From contig CM026428.1 of NCBI GenBank assembly GCA_014871385.1, forward strand, positions 3,234,776 to 3,298,775: a DNA stretch of 64,000 nt, read 5' to 3'. Shown here one piece after another: positions 39,023-53,514 of this stretch. The translations under genes were made by a program, and so were the position numbers. The stretch's first letter is position 1; the number at the start of each line of letters is the position of its first letter. A model generated the notes under the pieces. It was given only the letters and a program-made list of their open reading frames with translations, was not told the DNA's origin and did not search any database. Origin of the DNA: Ceratodon purpureus. Taxonomy: Eukaryota; Streptophyta; Bryopsida; Pseudoditrichales; Ditrichaceae.

Positions 39023-40360
39023 CAACAAAACTCTTCCACCATCTAGCATTGATTAACATTCTGATGAGTGCTTGCATGTGCCATGATGGTGGTGGTCCAT
39101 GTCCTGGGCTTTGTTCTAGACAAATGCATGTCTCCGAAACAAGAAGAGATCTAACTCAACTCACCAGCAAGGTTGTCACTCTCAAAAAATGGTCGACAAT
39201 GCGAGCTTTGGAGAGACAAGAATAATCTGATGATGGGTTCACAAGATCTGTGATGAAGGTGACAAGTCGGAAATTCTGAAGACACATGCGCGCTCAACCC
39301 TAGAAGAACCTCGTTGATGTCGGATCGTCGATGAATGCAATCCATATTGGATGAAGTACTGCATAATCTAAGAGAAGTGAAGAGTAGAGGATTTGTAATC
39401 TAAGAAAATGGTAGATGATGTTGTTGTGAAGTGGTGTTAAATTGTGATTGGATGATTTTTGTCAGTTTGTAGATGAAAGTGGGGTGGAAGGAATAAGCAG
39501 ATGGCGGTTCGTGGGGGGATGATGTGGCGTCGGGCAGGCTGAGGTGGCGTGATGAGGTGGCGTGCTGAGGTGGATGTAAGGAGGATGGCCACTTGGGGGG
39601 TGGGGTGAATGGTTTTGCGAGGGGGTGGTGGGTATGGCAGATAGCGGGCTGCGGAGGGAGTCAGTGAGTCACCGTTTGGCAACGTGGGGCGGGGAGTATG
39701 AGGCGCATGGTATGGAATGCTATGGTGCGGGAGAGGGCGGGGCTCGGGAGGTGCACAACTGCGCGCGGGCCTCCAGAGAGCTTCGCCATCCGAAGTGGAA
39801 GTGGAAGTGCGTGCGGAAGGTTCGGTGTTGGCTTTGAGTCTGCAGCTCGTGAGGTGCAGCCTTGGAAGTGCAGTGCGGTGGGTTCCAAGTTTGGAAGTGG
39901 GTTTCCGAAGGATCGCTGCCTCAGGGATTCGAAATGCTAGAGAGAAATGTTCTTCTTTAGAACAGAGATCAGATGTACAATCTCTGAGATTCTTCTCAAC
40001 TAATTCTCAACAACATATCAATGTATTGTACTCCCAGATAGATAGATAGAAACTCCGGTCCAAAATAGGGCCAGCGTGAATCGAGTGTCTGTACGTATGG
40101 TTAATGAACCAATGCTCACCAGACAAAGGGCCACTAATACCGAACTACTCACCCCTTTTGGGAATAGACACTACAGTAACTTATTAGTAACACTCACTGA
40201 ACCAAGTAGAAGAAAAAACGGAATGGTACTTCCATATAGGGCTTTTGTCCATGGCACACACCAAAACAAAAGATGTTTACGTTTGGTCTTTGTGCTTTCT
40301 ATTCCAAACTTATATCTAGCTCAAAGATTATTCTATTTGTAACCCCCTTAAGAAAAAAAT
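39023..40360. other. Intergenic region, partly GC-rich
   Basis: 39,470-39,900 is G-rich (GGTGGCGTG..GAGGTGG words at 39,520-39,570) and supports several overlapping short frames, none with a family match. 39,950-40,050 ends in an A/C-rich stretch with a GATA microsatellite (about 40,036-40,050). It might be the edge of an unrecognised retroelement LTR; no paired LTR was found. Confidence 0.35.
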
Positions 40361-40645
40361 TCTATAATCCTCAAAGCACCCCCCGCGAGGGAATCGCTCG
40401 TGGCACTTCGCCTCCCAAGCTTTTGGATGGAATGCCCGCCACAGCCAAAAGCCTGCGGGGCCAAAATATCCAGGCAGGGGGGCATAATTTTGGGAGGCTT
40501 CCGGACAGCCTAAACTGAAAGTTACCACAAGGATTCAAACCCAGCACCTCTGGCCCCAATCCTAGGCACTCATCATGCATTCAAATCAGCATGTCGACCA
40601 TGCTCGACCGTGCTACCTCGGTTGTACATCAATGAAGTTGCCATG
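40361..40645 (-). mobile_element. tRNA-derived SINE-like unit
   Basis: On the minus strand a head with GAGGTAGCACGGTCGAGCA and GGTCGACATGC resembles a tRNA-like A-box. About 60 bases on, GCTGGGTTTGAATCC matches a pol III B-box (GGTTCGAATCC). A GC-rich body follows. The A-box match is imperfect, and neither a 3' tail nor a target-site duplication was proven. Confidence 0.4.
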
Positions 40646-40849
40646 AATATAATGTTCTCCACGGGGGTTACGCAGGGTGAGCCCCTGCCGGGAGGGGCTC
40701 ACCCTACACTTTACTTCTATATCACGAGTAAACTTAATTCTTTACCATCAAAATACCCATATTCCAATGCATATCGGCTTCTTCGCTCTCAAAAACGGGC
40801 TATCAACATCGAACATATAAACATATTAATTTATAAACAAATAACTAGG

Positions 40850-41000
40850 CACCACAACTTTGGTGTAGTCGTTTGAGTCATGGCACACTGGTGTGGTTGT
40901 TGTGAGTTCAAATCTCCATGCTGACGTGGGACTTACTACCATAGGCCACCCAACTATGGTAAGGGGTCTTTAGACCTCGTTGTATGGCTATCCAAAATGC
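40850..41000 (+). mobile_element. Second SINE-like unit
   Basis: Contains GGTGTAGTCGTTTGAG (A-box-like) and, about 40 bases later, GAGTTCAAATCTCC (B-box), the spacing of tRNA-derived promoters. Downstream GTGGGACTTACTACC and CTTTAGACCTCG could be the SINE body. The 3' end is uncertain. Orientation is opposite to the unit at 40,361-40,645. Confidence 0.42.
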
Positions 41001-41194
41001 CCTTGGGGAGATAATATGTCGATTGTCTTTAAGGCATTAAGAAAAGAAAAGTGTTTACCTTTAAGAGGAGGAAGTAGCTCTAGATTCACTATCTTTTGTC
41101 AAGTGGGCATTAGATCGGTGAATAGAATGAACAAAGACTATATTCACACCGCCTTTTTGAAGTCGGAGTTCTTCTTTTTCTAAACAAATATTCA

Positions 41195-43037
41195 TAGGAA
41201 CATATGAATATATATATATATATAAATAAACAAACAAATGATCCTATGACTCAATGACCATATGAACATATGACCCAATAAACATAATATGAACATATGA
41301 CCCAATAAACATATGAATATACTTTGCACCCTTTATTGTCACATTCTGGATTATCACATACTCTCTAATATCACTAAACCCTAGCGAATAGATGTGCATT
41401 GTGCAAAACTCCTCCCCAATTGTCACTATCACTTCCCATAATGTCACACGCACCTCCTTTCAAATGCGCATTTGTTCCCTAGGGTTGCTAAAAGTCATCT
41501 TCATTCCATTTCTAAAGACTTCCATAATATCACATTTTCAACTAATTCTTTACAATCACATATCGAAATTAACACGAGAGACCTCTTCATTATCACATGC
41601 ATTTTGGTCATCCAAGGTGTGACAATAAAGGGTGCAGAGTGTATAGAGACCCAAGAATCTATCACCCTATGACCTTATGAACATATACACCTATGGCTCT
41701 ATGTATCAATAACCCTAGAATCCAATCAACCTATGTCCCTATGAACCCATGCACATATGACACTACACATATATGAAACTATAAACATATGACCTTATGA
41801 TCATATCTACACATCAACACATTATCAAATGAAGATATAACATATGAGCATTTGCACATATGAATATATGAACCCATTAATATATAAGAATAGAACATAT
41901 GAGAATCTAATATAAGACCTATGGACTTATGAATCTATGAACATATAAACATATGAACAAATGAAAATATAACCGTGCAAACCCGTGAAGCTATAAACAT
42001 ATGAACTTGTGAATCTATATACCTTATGAACCTATGAATATATAAATATATGGACATATGAACATAAAAAAATAATACCATATAAACATATGAATATAAA
42101 AACATCTGAATCTAGGAACATATGAACTTATGAATCTGAGAACCTATGACCATATGAACATATAAACCTGAGAATCTATGAAGAAATGAACATAATAAAT
42201 TAAAAAAAATATGAACATAAGAACATATGTGCACATGAACTCATAAATCCACAAATTCATCTATCTTATGAATATATAAACATATGAATCTATATGCCTA
42301 CAAATTAATTAATGAACACATGAACAAATAAATATATGAACATAAAAAACTATTAACCTCTACACACTTGAACACATCAGCATATCAACGTGCAAACATA
42401 TGACCCTACGCACGTCCCAACATATGAACATACGCACGTTTCAACATAATATGACCATATGCACGTATAAACATATGAACATATCGACTTGTTAACATGT
42501 GAGCATAAGATTATCTCAACATATGAACCTAAAAACATATCCACACATAAAAACATGAATCTATGAACATATTAAAATAAAAACATATTAATATATGAAC
42601 ATATTAATATATGAACATATTAATATATGAACATATTAATATATGAACATATTAATATATAACATATTACTATATAACATATTAATACATAACATATTAA
42701 TATATGAACATATTAATACATGAACATATTAATATATGAACATATTAATAAATGAACATATTAATATATGAACACACGAACATATTAACATATGAACATA
42801 TTAATATATGAACATACAAATATATTAACATATGAACATACAAACATATTAACATATGAACATATGAATATATGAACATCCTTATAGATTGATATGTTTC
42901 TATGTTAATATGTTCACATGGTCAAATCTAAAATATAATCACATAGTCATAAGTAAGATATGTTACCATGGTCAAATGTTCGCATGCTTATATGTTTTTT
43001 ATGTTCACATGTTTATATATCCATATGTTTATAGATT
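41195..43037. repeat. CATATGAACATA-type degenerate satellite
   Basis: Degenerate short-period array of ATATGAACAT words with embedded CATATG palindromes. 42,590-42,760 is a more regular 16-18-bp repeat (GAACATATTAATATAT units). Up to about 42,880 the GAACAT orientation dominates; after about 42,890 the complementary GTTCATATG orientation takes over and continues into the left arm of the large inverted repeat. A MITE interrupts the array at 41,322-41,639. Confidence 0.85.
41322..41639. mobile_element. MITE with 22-bp TIRs and repeated TCAC motifs, inside the satellite
   Basis: The left end (CTTTGCACCC then TTTATTGTCACA) is mirrored at the right end (TGTGACAATAAA then GGGTGCAGAG) with one mismatch. 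The interior carries at least eight copies of an A(A/T)T(A/G)TCAC(A)-like word (near 41,337, 41,353, 41,370, 41,420, 41,438, 41,527, 41,552 and 41,590). There is no coding frame. Flanks are satellite sequence; the target duplication is unclear. Confidence 0.7.
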
Positions 43038-44794
43038 CATATGGTCATATGTTTGTACGTGCATATGTTTATATGTTCACACGTTCATATGTTCGTATAT
43101 TCTTAGGTTCACATAATCACATGGTCATATATTCACATGGTTAAGTGTTCATATGGACATAGGTTTAGATGGTCATATGATTACATGGTCATATGTTTAG
43201 ATGTTCATATATTCATATAGACATATGTTCACATCTTAATATGTTCATATGTTTATATATTCATTTGTTCATATGTTGATAGGTTCATATATTTATATGT
43301 TTACATGCTGATAGCTTCAGATGGTCGTTTGTTCACATAGTCATAGGTTCATATGTTCATATCTTCATACCTTCATAGGTATATATGTTCACATGCTCAT
43401 AGATGCACATATTTAGATGATCCTCTGCTCATATATTATCATATTTATATGTTCATATGTTCGCATATATTATAGTCATAGATTCGCTCGTGCATATGTT
43501 CATATGGGCTTGAGTTCTTATATTTTGAATTTATTGCGATAAAAGAAACTAAAATAAAAAAAATGTTTTTATCATCTCAAGTGCACATTTATATCAAATA
43601 AAATTTAACATATATTAAAATCATATAAAATACACACATATATTAAACATAAAATATAAAATATAGTTAAAAAAGAATTTTCTTCAATTTTCTTCAATAT
43701 TCATTTATATCAATGAATTAGTTTTAAGTTTTTAGAAAAAAAAAAAAAAAAATCAAAAAATAAACATGAGATGCTAATTGATTTAAAAAATGTGAATTGA
43801 ATTAAAAAATATTGATTGATTTAAAAAATATTAATTGAATTAAAAAATGTTGATTGATTTTAAAAATGTAAAAAATGGCTTGGAATGTAAAGTGAATAAG
43901 TAAATCAGTGCAAATTTGAATTAGTATGGATTTAGAAATGACGTACAAGATTGTCATTGTTACCAATGTTAACAAGAAAGCACAGATCATTCTCATTGAG
44001 AGGTAGCAGGTGACTCCAACATTGCAACCCAGCTCGGAATTTCAACAATCCCAACCTTTTGGTCCGACATGTTGTTCCAACTTGTAGTAAAAGATTTTGA
44101 CGTATTAAAATAGTTTTGACAATTCAGCTAAAATTTCATAGTTTTTGCAAATCTGTACCAAAGTATAGTGAATTAAAGGTATTATATCAATACTAACAAT
44201 GTACATATACATTGAAGCAAATATGGATTCAATGTCAAGTGTTTATTTGGAAAAAAGGTTTTTAAATTTAGAATAAACTCATTTATCAAAGAGAATGAAT
44301 AAACTTGGAAAGGAGAGAATTTCAGATAGTAATTGAATGTTGTCATGAATTTTTGGACTTTAAAACTTAATAGATTGGAAGATTATGCTTGTTTTATTGT
44401 GACAAACTATAATTTTTTTATATTTTAAATATGTGTTTTTAAAAAATGTTAAAAACCTACATAGCCAATAAAATAAAATTTATTAATACATTTTTTTCAT
44501 TTTAACTGAGTGTGTAAATACTTTGACTTGATTTGAATTTGTAGAAGCATTTATATTTTTTTACATAAAAAATAAATAAACCAAATATGAATAATTAAAT
44601 TTTATGGTATAAAATGGTGTTATATATTTAGAAATGTTAAAATTAAGCAAATATATATTACGGACATTATGTGATTGTATCTCCTACATTATATAATATC
44701 TTACAGCTTCTGATATAGGGATCAAGACCTCACTTGTGTGGTGGTTCGAGATTCTCAGAGTACCATACCACGGAACAAACCGTTGGGGCTGCGA
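43038..44794. repeat. Large inverted repeat, left arm (1,757 bp)
   Basis: Pairs base for base with 45,864-47,620; every pair of matching positions I checked sums to 90,658, so there are no indels. The outer ~470 bp is CATATG satellite in the GTTCAT orientation and the rest is AT-rich non-coding DNA. The inner boundary is after CCGTTGGGGCTGCGA. An identical 64-codon frame occurs in both arms (43,802-43,996 minus and 46,662-46,856 plus) but looks non-coding. Confidence 0.93.
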
Positions 44795-45863
44795 TAAACT
44801 CATTTTTGCTGTGTTCTTGTGGCTTGTGGTTTTTGAAGTTATTTCAACTTTTCATAATGAGTATCAAACCTTTTTCAAAAGACGCAACATGAGTTAGATA
44901 ACGTTTAATATGAATAATGTTGCATGTAATTACTTAAGTCAAAATTAAAGGAGAAGGTTTTACTTGTCTTCATGCTGGTCTTCCATCCCAATGCCGTGGC
45001 AACCCGAACAACACATTGCGCAGCAAGGCGGTCGAGCCGATATGGGCTGATAAAGCAATGTAGGATGGGATCGAGACTTTTGACACATTAAATCACCTCC
45101 GTACTACACTTCACCAACATATCTTCATTTTTCCGGATGAAGTTTCGCAACCGCTTCACGCACGTCTCCGGGTCGCTGAAATGTGTCCCTGCATTCCGTT
45201 GCTTCGTGACTATTGTGAAGAGGCTTCCGGTCCCTCCAAAGGTGACGGAGCAGCAACGTCGAGGAATGTTTGACAATTTGCCTCAAAGTCTACTTGCTCG
45301 ATAAGCTTTATGAACTTGTCAGGTACACAATTAGGATCGTACCTTAGCAGTGTAGGAGTTCTGTGAATTTGAGAAATGAAACCCACCAACTCGTTCAGAA
45401 GGAATATTTCCTGCTCGCGCTCAGCCTTCTTCCTTAGGTGCTGCATGGCACAAAAATGGTTTAGATTTACTTAAATATATATTAATCTTCAATTATGATT
45501 CCAAACTTTATTATATATTGATGTTGATAACTTTAAATAAAATTCTTTAAATTTAAAATATTAAAATATTAAATTTCAACACGAGTCATAAATATTCGCA
45601 AATCAATCATACACAATAAGTAAAAAAAACAAAAAAAAATCTATCTTTAATACTGATTTTTCCAATAAGGAAAATACCATGAATTCCTAATAATGACAAC
45701 AACTTCGTCCATGAGTAATTTTGTTGCATATGTTGAATAAAAATAAATTAAAAATTATGAAACAAAGTATGAAAAAATTAATGTAAAAACTTACTTACCA
45801 TGCCGAGAGACTCCGCACCATCATACTATTACTTCACGCTATGTTGTCATTTAAATTGGCACT
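44795..45863. other. Spacer (loop) of the large inverted repeat
   Basis: About 1.07 kb of single-copy DNA between the arms. The part 44,970-45,460 is less AT-rich and coding-like on the minus strand (separate entry); the remainder is AT-rich. Confidence 0.8.
45088..45446 (-). pseudogene. Gene-like fragment of unknown family in the palindrome spacer
   Basis: Two overlapping minus-strand frames, 45,446-45,210 (MQHLRKKAEREQEIFLLNEL...) and 45,276-45,088 (...TCVKRLRNFIRKNEDMLVKC...), have the composition of real protein sequence and overlap as if separated by a frameshift or an intron. The first part is Lys/Glu-rich and helical in appearance. No family recognised. It could be a captured host exon, because the surrounding sequence is non-coding. 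Confidence 0.3.
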
Positions 45864-47620
45864 TCGCAGCCCCAACGGTTTGTTCCGTGGTATGGTACTC
45901 TGAGAATCTCGAACCACCACACAAGTGAGGTCTTGATCCCTATATCAGAAGCTGTAAGATATTATATAATGTAGGAGATACAATCACATAATGTCCGTAA
46001 TATATATTTGCTTAATTTTAACATTTCTAAATATATAACACCATTTTATACCATAAAATTTAATTATTCATATTTGGTTTATTTATTTTTTATGTAAAAA
46101 AATATAAATGCTTCTACAAATTCAAATCAAGTCAAAGTATTTACACACTCAGTTAAAATGAAAAAAATGTATTAATAAATTTTATTTTATTGGCTATGTA
46201 GGTTTTTAACATTTTTTAAAAACACATATTTAAAATATAAAAAAATTATAGTTTGTCACAATAAAACAAGCATAATCTTCCAATCTATTAAGTTTTAAAG
46301 TCCAAAAATTCATGACAACATTCAATTACTATCTGAAATTCTCTCCTTTCCAAGTTTATTCATTCTCTTTGATAAATGAGTTTATTCTAAATTTAAAAAC
46401 CTTTTTTCCAAATAAACACTTGACATTGAATCCATATTTGCTTCAATGTATATGTACATTGTTAGTATTGATATAATACCTTTAATTCACTATACTTTGG
46501 TACAGATTTGCAAAAACTATGAAATTTTAGCTGAATTGTCAAAACTATTTTAATACGTCAAAATCTTTTACTACAAGTTGGAACAACATGTCGGACCAAA
46601 AGGTTGGGATTGTTGAAATTCCGAGCTGGGTTGCAATGTTGGAGTCACCTGCTACCTCTCAATGAGAATGATCTGTGCTTTCTTGTTAACATTGGTAACA
46701 ATGACAATCTTGTACGTCATTTCTAAATCCATACTAATTCAAATTTGCACTGATTTACTTATTCACTTTACATTCCAAGCCATTTTTTACATTTTTAAAA
46801 TCAATCAACATTTTTTAATTCAATTAATATTTTTTAAATCAATCAATATTTTTTAATTCAATTCACATTTTTTAAATCAATTAGCATCTCATGTTTATTT
46901 TTTGATTTTTTTTTTTTTTTTTCTAAAAACTTAAAACTAATTCATTGATATAAATGAATATTGAAGAAAATTGAAGAAAATTCTTTTTTAACTATATTTT
47001 ATATTTTATGTTTAATATATGTGTGTATTTTATATGATTTTAATATATGTTAAATTTTATTTGATATAAATGTGCACTTGAGATGATAAAAACATTTTTT
47101 TTATTTTAGTTTCTTTTATCGCAATAAATTCAAAATATAAGAACTCAAGCCCATATGAACATATGCACGAGCGAATCTATGACTATAATATATGCGAACA
47201 TATGAACATATAAATATGATAATATATGAGCAGAGGATCATCTAAATATGTGCATCTATGAGCATGTGAACATATATACCTATGAAGGTATGAAGATATG
47301 AACATATGAACCTATGACTATGTGAACAAACGACCATCTGAAGCTATCAGCATGTAAACATATAAATATATGAACCTATCAACATATGAACAAATGAATA
47401 TATAAACATATGAACATATTAAGATGTGAACATATGTCTATATGAATATATGAACATCTAAACATATGACCATGTAATCATATGACCATCTAAACCTATG
47501 TCCATATGAACACTTAACCATGTGAATATATGACCATGTGATTATGTGAACCTAAGAATATACGAACATATGAACGTGTGAACATATAAACATATGCACG
47601 TACAAACATATGACCATATG
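45864..47620. repeat. Large inverted repeat, right arm (1,757 bp)
   Basis: Reverse complement of 43,038-44,794. The outer ~475 bp (about 47,145-47,620) is satellite in the GAACATATG orientation. Just beyond 47,620 the match stops and ordinary AT-rich sequence follows from about 47,640. Confidence 0.93.
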
Positions 47621-49254
47621 CACGTGTGATCATATGAAGTATGGAATAAGCTCACAAAATTTTGAGCCTCATAGGGGCTTGAAATTTAGAAAATGTCTTT
47701 GAATTTGTGAAAGGGATGTGCTGAAATTGCCTTACATTTTCCGAAAGTAAATCTACTTAAGGGGTAATCTTAAAATGTTGAATTGGAAATCCAAATAGTA
47801 GATATGTTGAAGTCAATGAGGAGAAGAACCACAAAAGAATTCAAGGCATTGTAGGTAGATTTCAAATTCGTAGAATTTTGGAAGTGTTAATTGTATATTT
47901 TATATTTATTTCGAAAGGCAGATTTGTTAAAAGGCAGTCTTGTGGATGGACCCTGCCACGTCACACATATTGGATAAAATTTACTAAGTTTAGATGAAAA
48001 ATGAGAATTGAATGAAATATTTTATGTTGATGAGAAATGGATTTTTGATGAGAACTAAGTTCTGAATGATAATTGTCATTTGAATGAAAAAATCAGCAAC
48101 CTTTTTAGTTGGAAACTAAGATGGAAACGCTTAGTTGGATGAAAATATTATATTGGATGAAAACTTTTAGAAATGTGTATGGATGAAAAAATATTGGGCT
48201 CATCATTTTACAAGCGCCTACCCTTTGAAATTTCGTCTTGTTACTTTTGTGAATGATGGGCAAATTGGCCAAAAAATGGGAGATTTTGATTGGTTATTGA
48301 TGCCCGGATTTAAACTAGATTCTTCTAAAATTCATAACTTTTGCATCGTTACTTCAAATGCTTTGAAATTTGCGCCATCGGAAAACTACTGGTAGAAGGT
48401 ATGTGCAACACAAAGTTTAGAAAATAATTAAATTCTAAAAACCTTAGAATAGCCTGCGTAGAAGTGCTCCGACTATAATATAGTTTCTGAGGCCTTTCGG
48501 GGTAAATGACATCAAGTTATATAAGGACTATATTTAGATACTAACATTACCTTTTAATAAATATTATGTCACATATGATAGTTAGTTTATACAAAATACC
48601 ATCATTTTTGAAGACGATTCGTCAAACATGACTTGTAATAGCATTGCTATTGAGTTTGCCATACAAAAAGACCATAGCTATCCAACATACCATGTCTAAT
48701 CTTCTCCGCAGAAAGGTCTGAAAATAACCAATCCCTTCTTTAAGTACATGACCCACCATGTACAACTAAAATAAAAAATTAGTAGTTAAGACTACTAAAT
48801 TATGTACTGATAATATAAGCACTTGTCTTTTAATCCATAGTAGGCTCGTTACTTTGCAGAATTCTTCTATTGCCTTGCAATTGTTTACTTAGTAGTGCTA
48901 AGTAAATATATACAATACACACATTGAAATGATTCGAATGAAGGTTTGACTAAAAACTCATTATATGATATAATTAGTCTCTACAACCAACAATTGAGCT
49001 CATGACTTAATAAACACCACATGCAATCATCAACAATTATACCTCAAAACCAAATACAAAGCTTCACTTGGACTTTGACCATTTGTGGTTAATGATTATT
49101 GATTACTTGTTCTTAGAATGTCTATTCTAAAAAGAAGAAATTAGTTCTATACCACTAACCTATGTTCCATAAATACAAGCTTAATGGTGGAATGAAAAGA
49201 TATTTTCTTCACTCCAATTTTTTTTCTTTGTGTACACAATATATATCCTTTGCA
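47621..49254. other. AT-rich intergenic DNA
   Basis: No gene recognised. 47,990-48,190 contains repeated GATGAAAA/GATGAGAA words. 48,230-48,410 (AATTCATAACTTTTGCATCG) faintly resembles 480-530 of the window's first element (ATAACTTTTGATCCTAATG), so it may be another decayed relative. Confidence 0.35.
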
Positions 49255-49551
49255 ATAAACCTCACCCTTGTCTAAATGACAAAGGCCTCCCAAGCAAGGC
49301 AACCATTGGAGGGATAAAAATGCCTTCTATAAATATTTAGTTGATGAAAAAATTAACATTTAATTTTTTTTTTTAATTTTAAAAATTGATTATTTAATCT
49401 AAAATGAATTAAGTGGGTTCCCCTAGACTAATTGGAGGTTCTTAGCACTAATAATTTTTTTAAACTTACTAAAAGAGGGGTGCAAATCTTCTAAAATCAA
49501 AATCAAGGAGGGGAAGGGCCAATCCGTCATCAAGACAAGGGCAAGGTTTAC
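49255..49551. mobile_element. MITE, family M1 copy B (~297 bp)
   Basis: Begins ATAAACCTCACCCTTGTC and ends GACAAGGGCAAGGTTTA, a better-preserved terminal inverted repeat than in copy A (18,874-19,199). The internal word order is shared with copy A (GGCAACCATTGGAGGG, TTAGTTGATGAAAAA, CCCTAGACTAATT, TTACTAAAAG, AATCAAGGAGG). Non-coding. Confidence 0.75.
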
Positions 49552-49600
49552 TATAAGAGTATATATATATACTCTTCATTAACAAAACTTAGCATCCATA

Positions 49601-49843
49601 TTAATCCTTAAAGGTCAACCCTAGCCCCTCGGGCTTCGTTTTATTTTGCAAGAATCTTGCTCATATTTTATACTCCATTGCATCAAATGGGGTTTTTAGA
49701 ATGCCAAACTGAGCATCTTAAAGAGATCTATATTTCTTCAGAAGAGAACCAAAGCAAATTGAAAAGAGAATTATACTTAAAATGGAGTTTAAAAGAGATT
49801 TTGGAGTGCCGTATCAAACAAGGAATTGTCCTTTAAGGGTTAA
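49601..49843. mobile_element. Small TTAA-flanked MITE (243 bp)
   Basis: Starts TTAATCCTTAAAGGTCAA and ends TTGTCCTTTAAGGGTTAA; the ends are inverted repeats with two mismatches in 18, each bordered by TTAA. The right end closely resembles the end of the element at 1-659. Non-coding, AT-rich. Confidence 0.6.
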
Positions 49844-51322
49844 TAAAGTCATGAGTCATTTACCTTATGTAATAATGAACAACTAACGTTGAATCTCATC
49901 CACAGTGATTGCAATTTGCAACGAAGCAGAACTTCTAGGGCTTGGAGTTCGGATCTAATGCAATCAAATTTGTGCCAACTTCAGACTGACTTGTCAACAA
50001 CCTCACATGGATGCCAAGAGCCTGATTTTGTTGTTGATTCCTTCATATTCCGGTACCCTCAACTGGCATCTCTCTGGTGAAGTTTTGTGCATAATTTCCT
50101 CCTGCTTTCACATTCACTGCCATCTCCAAGGATCCTGTTCCTGACAGCTTGCTGTGTAATTTCCATAATGCCAATTTCAGTTTTTGAGAATGTACTCCAG
50201 TGTTTTGGTAAGTGGGTGAGAGGGGGATTATGACCCATAATGCTAAGTATGATTATATGTTGCTACACATGCACAGTTCGAACATGTTATTGTATTCATG
50301 TGTTACAGAGATTGCTGTTTCTCGACAGTACTTTGTGTGCAATCCATAACGCCAAGTTAAGTTTTTGAGAGTGTACATAAGTGTTTTGGTTGGTGGGTTA
50401 GAGGAGGATTACATGACTCATAATGCTTATATGGGTAATCGTATATTGTCGTGTGTGTGTATAATCAGAACGCATTTTTATATTTGTGTGTTACGGAGAT
50501 TGCTGTATCTTGACAGGAGTTTGTGTGCAATCTGTGTTTGAGAATCAAGTGGTTGTGGAAATGATCTTACGTCTACTTTGAGGTTTCTACAATGCTGCTG
50601 CTGATGCAGTTAATGCAATTGCGGGGAGAAACACAGTGAAGCTAATTTGCTGGAAGGGTCGAAGCAGTGTGGTTGTGGTTTGGGTTTAGATTCTCAATGC
50701 ATAGAATTTTAGCTTACTTTCGAATTGAAGATCATATTATATGAGAGTTGATTCTTCTCCCCAGGTAGCGACCAGCTCAGAGTTAACAGAATTCAGTAGC
50801 ACAGGGCTACAAATTACTATGTTCCTTTGTTGGAGAGATTTTGGAAGGTTTTCTGAGGATCACTGCTAAGTAGACGGAGAGGTCAATAACGTTCATGTAT
50901 TGAATGTGTCTTTGTGTCTTCTAGGAAACAGGTTGAGACAGAAAGAAGCAATGGCGAATGAGGGCTTTGAGTTGAGCAAGGGAAGTAGCTCCCATGCGAG
51001 TACAGTGGTTGTCTTCAAGTCCAGAGATGAACATCCACAAGCATCCAATTCTGAACGGTCATTTGAAGAAGGCTACGTTTGGGATAAATGCTTGAGTGAC
51101 TGGATTATTGCATAGAAATTAGAATTTGAAATATAGAACTTGGATTACATGGTATGCTTTGATTAGCGAGTCTAGGACTCAGACGATTTACTTTCTTGTA
51201 GCTCAGACCTTGTCCTATACATGATTCTCCTTGAAGAAAGAGATCTTTCGGTCTGCAGCTTAGTAAACTAATCCAGAATTCTTTGGCTGGATTCTGGAGA
51301 CTGATATTATTTCGCATATCTT
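49844..51322. other. Intergenic region with a diverged tandem duplication
   Basis: Contains the ~189-bp tandem repeat listed separately. A 71-codon frame (50,900-51,115, plus) includes MANEGFELSKGSSSHASTVV and ends DKCLSDWIIA; its composition is protein-like but no family is recognised and no splice partners were found, so it is not called. The 3' UTR of the root-cap-domain gene should lie at the right edge. Confidence 0.35.
50140..50517. repeat. Diverged ~189-bp tandem duplication
   Basis: Copies at about 50,140-50,328 and 50,329-50,517 share GTTTTTGAGA(A/G)TGTAC, AGTGTTTTGGT, GGGTGAGAGG/GGGTTAGAGG, ACTCATAATGCT/ACCCATAATGCT, and the closing GTGTTAC(A/G)GAGATTGCTGT...GACAG. A third partial copy starts at 50,518 (AGTTTGTGTGCAATC). 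Confidence 0.65.
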
Positions 51323-53514
51323 CTACCTATGGCAGGTGATACCACCTGGAACATCAGAAGGGAAACCGCTGCTTCTGCATTCGGTGTGGAAGGTGGTCGT
51401 TTCTGATCCCGCAGGAACGGCGCTAGTAGTGTACTGGCTCGACTTGCAATCCGTTGCTAGTAGGGAAGAGCTTTCGAACTTTGCAGCTCCGTCCATGATG
51501 GGCATGGGGACGCTTGTGTTCACCGGGTTTGTGAACCCAGGCTGATAGGTCCGGCCAAGCACACCATTTACGGAAGATGAAAGGTTATAGAATTTGAACT
51601 GCATGTCGAAGTGCGCGAAGCAGTCGACATTCTCAGGAATGTCGTATTTGTGAACCAGGTTGGCTCTCTTCGAGACGGGGACCACGGTTAGCGACACTTC
51701 CATCTTCCCCTTGATTGCCATAAGTACCGAGTTTGCGGCTCCAATGCGGGTCAGGGTCATGGCTGCGTCGGGAGATGCCCATGACATGGTGGTGAGGTTG
51801 AGAGGCTCCCTGTTGTAGGAGAATTCGAGATGGTCCTCTTGGTTGTGCCATTGTGGAACGAAGCGCTTGGCAGCGATGATGAGAGTGTGGGGCCCAAAGA
51901 CGAACCCGAGAGCCTGCACCCATGTGTTGTCATGGGTGTGTCCCGCCGGGCGCGTGCCGATGAAGTGGGCGTTGATGTGAAGGTCGCTGTCCGAGACGAG
52001 GCAGAAGTCGTGGTTCTTGCGTCCGTAGAAGTAGAAGATGACTCCGTCGCCGCCCACGACCTGGGGATCGCCGCAAACGCCACCTTCCTTCTTGCAGTCG
52101 GCTGCGGAATAATCAATCAATTTCAAACACGGTAACGATCAGTTAATCTCCAATTATTCCATATGAAGTACAATGACAGTTCAGCATAGTTTTGCCATGT
52201 TGAATTCCTACCTGGCGCGGCGCAACAATGTTATCAATTGCGGCTGTTACATTTGCCAAGTATTATCGTAAAATATCTTATCATTTAATCTGTTCGTTAT
52301 GATCTTCATCTGAAATCATTCGGTAAACAATGTGAATCACGCAAATGAATAGATGATCAAATGGACACCACTAAGGAATGTCGAGGTTTAGGTTTTAGGA
52401 GAAACAGACGTCCTGTTGCGTTGCCGGCTGATCGGCTTGGCTCTTGACCGTCATGACTGCTGTTGTTGCCACTGTGGTTGCCTTGATTGTTATCACCAGG
52501 ATTGCCAACGTTGCTACCTCCCACACCAGGAGCTTTGCCACCAGGAGCACTGCCTCCACTGCCTCCGATGGGAGTTTGGTGAGCACCATTGCCTCTCGTC
52601 TTGTTCAAACGACCGTGATTAATTCTCGTATGGTTATAACCTCGATTGCTTCCTCCAGATGTATGACCGCCATTGCCTTTTTTGGTACCATCACGATTGC
52701 TTCCATGTCCACCTTTGTTGCGTACTTCGAAGTGTGTCTGATTACCTTTGCCTGTTCCTTCGTTGCGACGGTTGTGAACGAGTCCAGGATGAATATTTGG
52801 TACTTGATGATCAATTGTTCCGTTTTTATCAACATGACCAATATGAGCTTTTGTTCCGTTTTTACCAACATGAACATTCGTTCCGTTTTTACCGACATGA
52901 CCAACATGAGCATTTGTTCCGTTTTTACCGACATGACCAACATGAGCATTTGTTCCGTTTTTTCCAGTATGACCAATATGAGCATTTGTTCCGTTTTTTC
53001 CAATATGAACATTTGTTCCGTTTTTACCAGTATGACCATTGCCACTAACAGGTATGTGCCCACCATTACCAACATTTCCTTTGCGTCTGATGTTAGTACT
53101 CTGGCTACCTTTGCCTCCTATGGAACCACTAGGATTACCGAGTCCAGGCTTGCTACCAGGATGAGTATTGTTAGTGCTCTTGTTGTGGTCTTTATTATAA
53201 ACTCCTCCTTTGTTGGGCGTTGGCTTTGGCAGGTTTTTACCAACAGGCACATTGCCTCCGACATGATTGCTACCTCCATTTCCAGATCCTTTGCCTGCAT
53301 CTCCGCTATGTATACTGCCACTGGCTGTAGCGTTCGATGATCTGTTGCGATGTTCTTCGTTGATACCATCATTGTGCCGGCCAGGTCCATACTCATCCTT
53401 ACCAAGGAAACTTGGGGTGGCTGCAGCCAAGTGTGGCTCCATCACGAGCATGGCCACCATAGCTACAAGAAGCACCGTCATTGTGGGCAGACTCTGCATC
53501 AACCGAAAAACCAT
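51323..53514 (-). CDS. Secreted root-cap-domain protein with an NGT/His repeat region, at least 2 exons
   Basis: The C-terminal exon (52101-51323, ~259 aa) matches the plant Root_cap family (late-embryogenesis-related extracellular proteins such as Arabidopsis At5g54370): CKKEGGVCGDPQVVGGDGVI, FCLVSDSDLHINAHFIGTRP, TWVQALGFVFG, NVDCFAHFDMQFKFYNLSSS, VNGVLGRTYQPGF, VPMPIMDGAAKF. Exon 1 starts at 53,514 with a signal peptide (SLPTMTVLLVAMVAMLVMEP, Ala-rich cleavage region) followed by >300 residues of Gly/Asn/His-rich sequence. That region includes a tandem block around 53,030-52,820 built from GKNGTNAHIGHV-like units, each with an N-G-T glycosylation sequon. The frame of exon 1 stays open to 52,357, so the donor is not certain; phase-1 GT sites such as CCTG|GTGATA (near 52,495) would join the frame to CCGACTGC. 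The Cys-rich segment that precedes the domain in many relatives is not seen. It could be two genes, but exon 2 has no ATG of its own. Confidence 0.75.

What the first reader, a model, noticed from the sequence alone, without database searches (positions are those of the whole stretch)
43038..47620. 4.6-kb palindrome with 1,757-bp arms and no visible divergence
The arms match without indels wherever compared (matching positions always sum to 90,658) and even share an identical 64-codon frame. Such arms could form a cruciform or give a long hairpin RNA feeding siRNAs, or represent a foldback/Mutator-like element with very long TIRs carrying a captured gene fragment in its spacer. Lack of divergence means either a very recent event, gene conversion, or an assembly error.
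Basis: partly seen in the sequence, partly recalled or inferred. Interest (0 to 1): 0.8.

Follow-up and report, generated by a model that had tools for sequence, protein, structure and literature searches.

The report
Young exact palindrome in moss-like DNA
A 4.6-kb stretch of what is probably a moss chromosome carries two exactly matching mirror-image arms, most likely made by a recent local copying accident in old non-coding repeat DNA and not by a jumping gene.

Summary
The palindrome is in the sequence as described: two 1,757-bp arms (43038-44794, 45864-47620), no mismatch, 1,069-bp spacer. Each arm has an outer ~470 bp of degenerate 8-bp array (ATATGAAC)n and an inner ~1,285-bp low-copy, apparently non-coding core ("U"). 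U has long matches at three other loci, 73-87% alike, all in inverted arrangement or remnants of it, so the inverted layout is older than the identity of the arms. The spacer is a mixture: a decayed fragment of a multi-exon gene family, a piece of U's internal region, and filler. The left arm joins the gene fragment through 2 shared bases, while the right arm carries about 12 more bases of U. No target-site duplication was found, nor any transposase in the frames searched. Best reading: a recent inverted duplication by fold-back or template switching at an old palindromic repeat (0.5); arm-to-arm gene conversion is the main rival (0.33). A foldback or Mutator element is not supported, though the core does begin at a common point in several copies. 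The hairpin-RNA idea is untested, and assembly error cannot be excluded without reads. Known kind of event; modest interest.

The parts
43038..44794 (+). left arm, exact (1,757 bp)
45864..47620 (-). right arm, exact (1,757 bp)
44795..45863 (.). spacer, 1,069 bp, mosaic
43510..44794 (+). core U, left copy; homology to L009, L010 and L011 begins at 43510
45852..47148 (-). core U, right copy, with about 12 bp (45852-45863) more of U than the left copy
41771..42879 (+). left 8-bp array, unit ATATGAAC, outside the palindrome
42880..43037 (-). 8-bp array in flipped orientation, outside the exact arm, no equal counterpart on the right
43038..43509 (-). 8-bp array within the left arm, unit TATGTTCA on the + strand
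47149..47620 (+). 8-bp array within the right arm; array-like sequence ends near 47640
44793..45467 (-). fragment of gene family X (87% to L013; first 328 bp 89% to L014), with stops
45466..45749 (+). piece of the internal region of U (73-75% to L009, L010 and L011)
45750..45851 (.). filler without a match in the genome search
44793..44794 (.). 2 bp (GA) shared by U and X at the left inner junction

Best explanation
The locus is a recent local inverted duplication laid over an old, low-copy palindromic repeat. A broken or stalled end running leftward through gene fragment X switched, through 2 shared bases (GA), onto the opposite-strand U copy about 1 kb away, copied outward through U and the adjoining 8-bp array, and rejoined the left-hand array through its repeated units. 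One such event would give exact arms, a truncated X, a left arm shorter on the inside, and an array that flips orientation left of the arm. Identity, boundaries and junction sequences are shown; the copying path and its direction (right arm as template) are inferred. The product looks like inert by-product DNA that should be prone to further rearrangement; no molecular function is proposed.
For: Arms are identical over 1,757 bp, while the same core is only 73-87% alike between loci, so the identity is local and recent. The arms include ~470 bp of array: a 26-base array pattern (up to 2 mismatches) has 3 hits in the assembly, all in the left array of this locus. Inner left junction: U reads GCTGCGA|AGTGCC, X reads ATTGATAAAC, the window reads GCTGCGATAAAC, so GA is shared. 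The right arm alone continues in U for about 12 bp. Spacer length and 2-bp microhomology lie within what is reported for human fold-back duplications: spacers of 766-70,466 bp, with 724 bp in one table row, and 2 bp at 7 of 13 microhomology junctions (PMC3907307, passages). At C8:5.20 Mb, another U locus, flank DNA found almost nowhere else is present as inverted copies, 514 bp at 99.8% and 591 bp at 93.2%.
Against: Two bases of microhomology is weak: simulated junctions in the same paper had 0-4 bp, with none at 55%. The flipped array runs 158 bp beyond the identity (42880-43037) without a counterpart on the right, so a later loss or a further switch must be added. The inverted layout pre-dates the identity at related loci, so conversion between existing arms explains the identity without a new duplication. 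The array pattern does not hit the arrays inside the arms themselves; arm-array DNA has several short weaker similarities elsewhere, and that search skips simple repeats. No second strain was available.
Confidence: 0.5

Rival explanations
1. Gene conversion: both arms are old, inherited from the ancestral U palindrome, and were recently made identical by arm-to-arm conversion over the whole stretch where they could align.
For: L010, L011 and L012 share, at about 80% identity, the junction between U's internal region and an inverted arm, so the inverted layout is old. In the window the internal piece 45466-45749 keeps its ancestral orientation relative to the left arm and lies next to the right arm. 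Inverted U arms at C8:4.18 Mb are 99.0% identical over 1,199 bp. Conversion tracts averaging 2,068 bp are known in a human Y palindrome (PMC3723533, abstract).
Against: The right arm has an inner end (44580-44806) that the equivalent arm lacks in L010, L011 and L012, and the left arm is cut by X; conversion needs extra steps for both. L011 arms overlap by 123 bp and are only 80% alike.
Confidence: 0.33
2. Assembly artefact: the second arm, or its perfect identity, was created by the assembler or by polishing.
For: Perfect identity. The assembly holds at least one other perfect long duplication, 5,811 bp or more identical between C3 and C9.
Against: Outer flanks and inner junctions differ between the arms, a 4.6-kb structure is short for long reads (general knowledge), and related loci also carry inverted arms. 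Read data were not available.
Confidence: 0.1
3. A foldback or Mutator-like DNA transposon with long terminal inverted repeats, carrying a captured gene fragment.
For: Long inverted arms with tandem short units outside and a gene fragment inside; core homology begins at 43510 against L009, L010 and L011.
Against: No target-site duplication. The outer sequence differs: array here, one flank type in L010 and L011, another in L009 and L012. Only four strong loci. No transposase in ten typed frames.
Confidence: 0.07

Closest known systems
Fold-back inverted duplications with a spacer (human, PMC3907307)
   Same: Inverted copies flank a short spacer; 2-bp microhomology at the inner junction; spacer size within the reported range
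   Different: Small and interstitial, not large and tied to terminal deletions; sits at an older palindromic repeat
Gene-converted palindromes (human Y P6, PMC3723533)
   Same: Near-perfect arms around a unique spacer; inverted layout older than the arm identity
   Different: Not on the very large contig I take to be the sex chromosome; no recognised gene in the arms; conversion not observed directly
Foldback / Tm1 elements (PMC3169594)
   Same: Long inverted arms with short tandem units
   Different: No target-site duplication; four strong loci only; array not seen next to the other copies
Mutator-like elements with long TIRs (PMC3310237)
   Same: Long inverted repeats with a gene fragment between them
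   Different: MULE TIRs are typically 100-500 bp with 9-11 bp target duplications (passage); none found here

Membership tests
Foldback (FB/Tm1) transposon | target-site duplication, most often 9 bp | tested here: not met
   No direct repeat of 5-11 bp at exact ends 43038/47620 or 43510/47148; within 12 bp either way the best is 7 bp, reached at 97 of 200 random array positions
Foldback (FB/Tm1) transposon | inverted arms containing tandem short units | tested here: met
   8-bp array in the outer ~470 bp of both arms
Foldback (FB/Tm1) transposon | dispersed copies sharing the same ends | tested here: inconclusive
   Core homology starts at 43510 against L009, L010 and L011, at 43558 against L012; flanks beyond differ and the array is not shared
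Mutator-like element | 9-11 bp target-site duplication | tested here: not met
   same ends
Mutator-like element | MULE transposase in the element or an autonomous relative | tested here: inconclusive
   Ten typed frames gave no transposase match in Pfam; the ~8.4-kb insert at C8:4.18 Mb was searched with one frame only
Gene-converting palindrome | inverted arrangement older than the arm identity | tested here: met
   Shared junction in L010, L011 and L012 at about 80% identity
Gene-converting palindrome | conversion events observed among individuals | not testable with these tools
   No second strain held
Fold-back inverted duplication | spacer plus microhomology at the inner junction | tested here: met
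   2 bp at 44793-44794, spacer 1,069 bp; weak, as 2 bp can occur by chance
Fold-back inverted duplication | pre-event allele without the second arm | not testable with these tools
   No second assembly held
Long-hairpin siRNA locus | transcription across the arms and small RNAs from them | not testable with these tools
   No RNA data; none of 11 Rfam matches in 40000-50000 reached its gathering score

The most novel reading that the evidence does not exclude
U is a recurrent palindrome-forming hotspot: the four strong U loci all carry inverted structure or its remnants, three of four have a near-identical inverted repeat (99.0-100%), and at two of them the repeat includes neighbouring non-U DNA. 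The old inverted core would keep seeding new fold-backs and be renewed by conversion on an ordinary chromosome.
Probability: 0.3. Interest if true: 0.45.

Novelty: new member of a known kind. Interest (0 to 1): 0.3.

Why it matters
It is a readable example of the birth or renewal of a palindrome outside the contig taken to be the sex chromosome, in what is probably a moss, with the inner junction, the likely template and older relatives all in view. If the hotspot reading held, this small repeat family could be used to study how inverted repeats seed further inverted duplication and how arm identity is kept. It also cautions against reading exact inverted arms plus a gene fragment as a transposon.

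Tried and rejected
Transposon reading: target-site duplications tested at two candidate boundaries with a random-position control, outer ends compared, Pfam on ten typed frames. Not preferred; the common start of core homology at 43510 is the point in its favour, and its odds were raised slightly for it.

Coding reading of the shared 64-codon frame: a homologous open frame exists in L009 and L010, but there is no codon-position signal. Rejected.

RNA gene reading: no tRNA or tmRNA found by a bacterial-mode scan of the window; 11 Rfam matches in 40000-50000, all below gathering score, most of them miRNA models in the arrays. Rejected as evidence.

Exon-like stretch at the inner arm end (about 44700-44806): 7 matches in the genome, 4 of them with stops; apart from U loci, one at C8:6392234 and one weak at C10 (E 1.08); no Pfam match. 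Left unexplained.

Gene family X: no Pfam match above cut-off for its typed frames.

Full report
Observation. The palindrome is real in the assembled sequence. The repeat finder gives arms of 1,773 bp; the six mismatches all fall in the outermost 16 bp (43028-43037), so the exact arms are 1,757 bp, 43038-44794 and 45864-47620, with a 1,069-bp spacer. Zero differences in 1,757 bp puts the divergence below about 0.17% (rule of three). In 15 sequences totalling 185,012 bases (the window and 14 other loci of the same genome) no other inverted repeat of at least 150 bp and 85% identity was found. The 14 loci are not random: nine were fetched for matches to the spacer or to gene family X (L013, L014, L017-L023) and five for short matches to the arms (L024-L028).

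Setting. The window is C8:3234776-3298775 of an assembly of 362,488,568 bases in 151 contigs. One contig (C6) reaches at least 90.4 Mb and C1 at least 29 Mb (match positions); the seven contig lengths shown run from 16.7 to 26.6 Mb. I infer, without a named match, a moss such as Ceratodon purpureus: a review table lists 358 and 349.5 Mb for two isolates and the text gives its sex chromosomes as about 30% of the genome (PMC13120521, passages). That C6 is the sex chromosome is part of the same inference.

Anatomy. Outer layer: about 470 bp of a degenerate 8-bp array. It reads ATATGAAC at 41771-42879, flips to TATGTTCA at 42880, and reads ATATGAAC again in the right arm until about 47640. A 26-base array pattern with up to 2 mismatches has 3 hits in the assembly, all in the left array outside the palindrome; it does not hit the arrays inside the arms, and short weaker similarities to arm-array DNA exist on other contigs, so 'private to this locus' holds for the regular part of the array only. 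Inner layer: core U, 43510-44794 and its mirror. Long matches to U lie at C8:4.18 Mb (two half-copies, L009 and L010), C8:5.20 Mb (L012) and C3:21.48 Mb (L011), between 73 and 87% alike in the aligned pieces. Weaker or shorter fragments exist too, for example 283 bp at 68% at C8:5117134.

Old inverted layout. L010, L011 and L012 share the junction between U's internal region and an inverted arm (L011/L012 427 bp at 80%; L010/L012 607 bp at 80%), so the inverted arrangement is older than these divergences. Inverted repeats within loci can nevertheless be nearly identical: 99.0% over 1,199 bp at C8:4.18 Mb, with about 11.5 kb between the arms, and at C8:5.20 Mb 99.8% over 514 bp and 93.2% over 591 bp. 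At C8:5.20 Mb these repeats are flank, not the U core. Of nine matches to that flank query, three are the locus itself and its inverted copies, one is the L009 flank at C8:4.18 Mb, and five touch only the short U end of the query. L011 is the exception: its arms overlap by 123 bp at 80%. So three of the four loci have a near-identical inverted repeat.

A mixed arm. In the alignment of arms the window copy holds both a stretch of about 60 bp that L009, the internal copy of L010 and the inner copy of L011 lack, and the inner end that the inverted arms of L010, L011 and L012 lack. Either the window keeps an ancestral form or its arm is a recombinant of the two types; I cannot tell which.

Spacer. 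44793-45467 matches L013 at 87%, and its first 328 bp match L014 at 89%. It is a fragment of a multi-exon gene family: 20 matches at E up to 10, 12 of them below 0.001 at nine loci including the window. No Pfam family was found for its typed frames, and the window copy has stops. 45466-45749 is a piece of U's internal region. 45750-45851 has no match. About 12 bases (45852-45863) continue the right arm into U.

Junctions. The left arm meets X at 44794/44795. L013 and L014 read ATT|GATAAAC there, U reads GCTGCGA|AGTGCC, and the window reads GCTGCGATAAAC, so GA belongs to both. The outer ends lie within the array, where repeated units give ready homology.

Mechanism. A fold-back or template switch from X onto the right U copy, copying outward into the array and rejoining the left array, accounts for the exact arms, the truncated X, the shorter left arm and the flipped array in one event. 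Human fold-back duplications show comparable spacers and 2-bp microhomology (PMC3907307, passages); simulated junctions in that paper had 0-4 bp, so 2 bp is weak support. Gene conversion between pre-existing arms explains the identity equally well and fits the age of the inverted layout and the orientation of the internal piece 45466-45749; conversion tracts of about 2 kb are known (PMC3723533, abstract). I prefer the fold-back because of the inner junction, at about 0.5 against 0.33. The extra 158 bp of flipped array (42880-43037) is not explained by a single copying step.

Transposon reading. No target-site duplication was found at either candidate boundary; the best nearby match, 7 bp, is reached or exceeded at 97 of 200 random array positions. 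For the reading: core homology begins at 43510 against L009, L010 and L011 alike (43558 against L012), as a unit end would. Against it: the flanks beyond differ by type. L011 has a high-copy repeat of about 927 bp (2,219 first-look candidates, 40 scored), of which the last ~340 bp are present at L010; L009 and L012 share another flank; here there is the array. The core may descend from an old element, but the present exact palindrome is not bounded like one. The definitions used are those of PMC3169594 and PMC3310237 (passages).

Literature. A search of the held library for Ceratodon purpureus with palindrome gave two papers (listing only), and one for long inverted repeats, siRNA, Physcomitrella and hairpin gave one paper on virus-infected Arabidopsis (listing only). 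No description of this locus was seen; only open-licence papers were searched.

Verdict. Observation confirmed. The object is an exact young palindrome in apparently non-coding DNA, of a known kind. The most interesting reading is that this small repeat family keeps forming or renewing palindromes; four loci and a non-random control cannot establish that.

Noticed in passing
L017 583-6393 and L018 4190-10000 (C3:5.03 Mb, C9:14.23 Mb): At least 5,811 bp are 100% identical between two chromosomes, running off the end of L018 and starting there beside a long low-complexity tract; a very young duplication or an assembly duplicate.
   Followed up: partly
L009 3819-5351 and L010 4705-6237 (C8:4.18 Mb): A 1,533-bp direct repeat, 99.7% identical, flanks about 8.4 kb of DNA with a 414-aa open frame, inside the internal region of a U locus.
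   Followed up: partly
L011 2258-3185: A repeat of about 927 bp with sharp ends and very high copy number abuts the outer end of the U arm; its type was not determined.
   Followed up: partly
window 41320-41645 (approximate): A short element with inverted ends around TGCACCCTTTATTGTCACA appears inserted in the 8-bp array; looks like a MITE (by eye).
   Followed up: no
C8:3.28, 4.18 and 5.20 Mb: Three of the four strong U loci lie on one chromosome, about 1 Mb apart.
   Followed up: no
window 44197-44214 and its mirror: A small dyad (CAATGTACATATACATTG) in a well-conserved block of U: unchanged in L009 and L010, one or two changes in L012 and L011 (alignment).
   Followed up: no
window 52807-53040: Tandem array of 27-, 36- and 63-bp units around GAACATTTGTTCCGTTTTTACCAA; not examined.
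   Followed up: no
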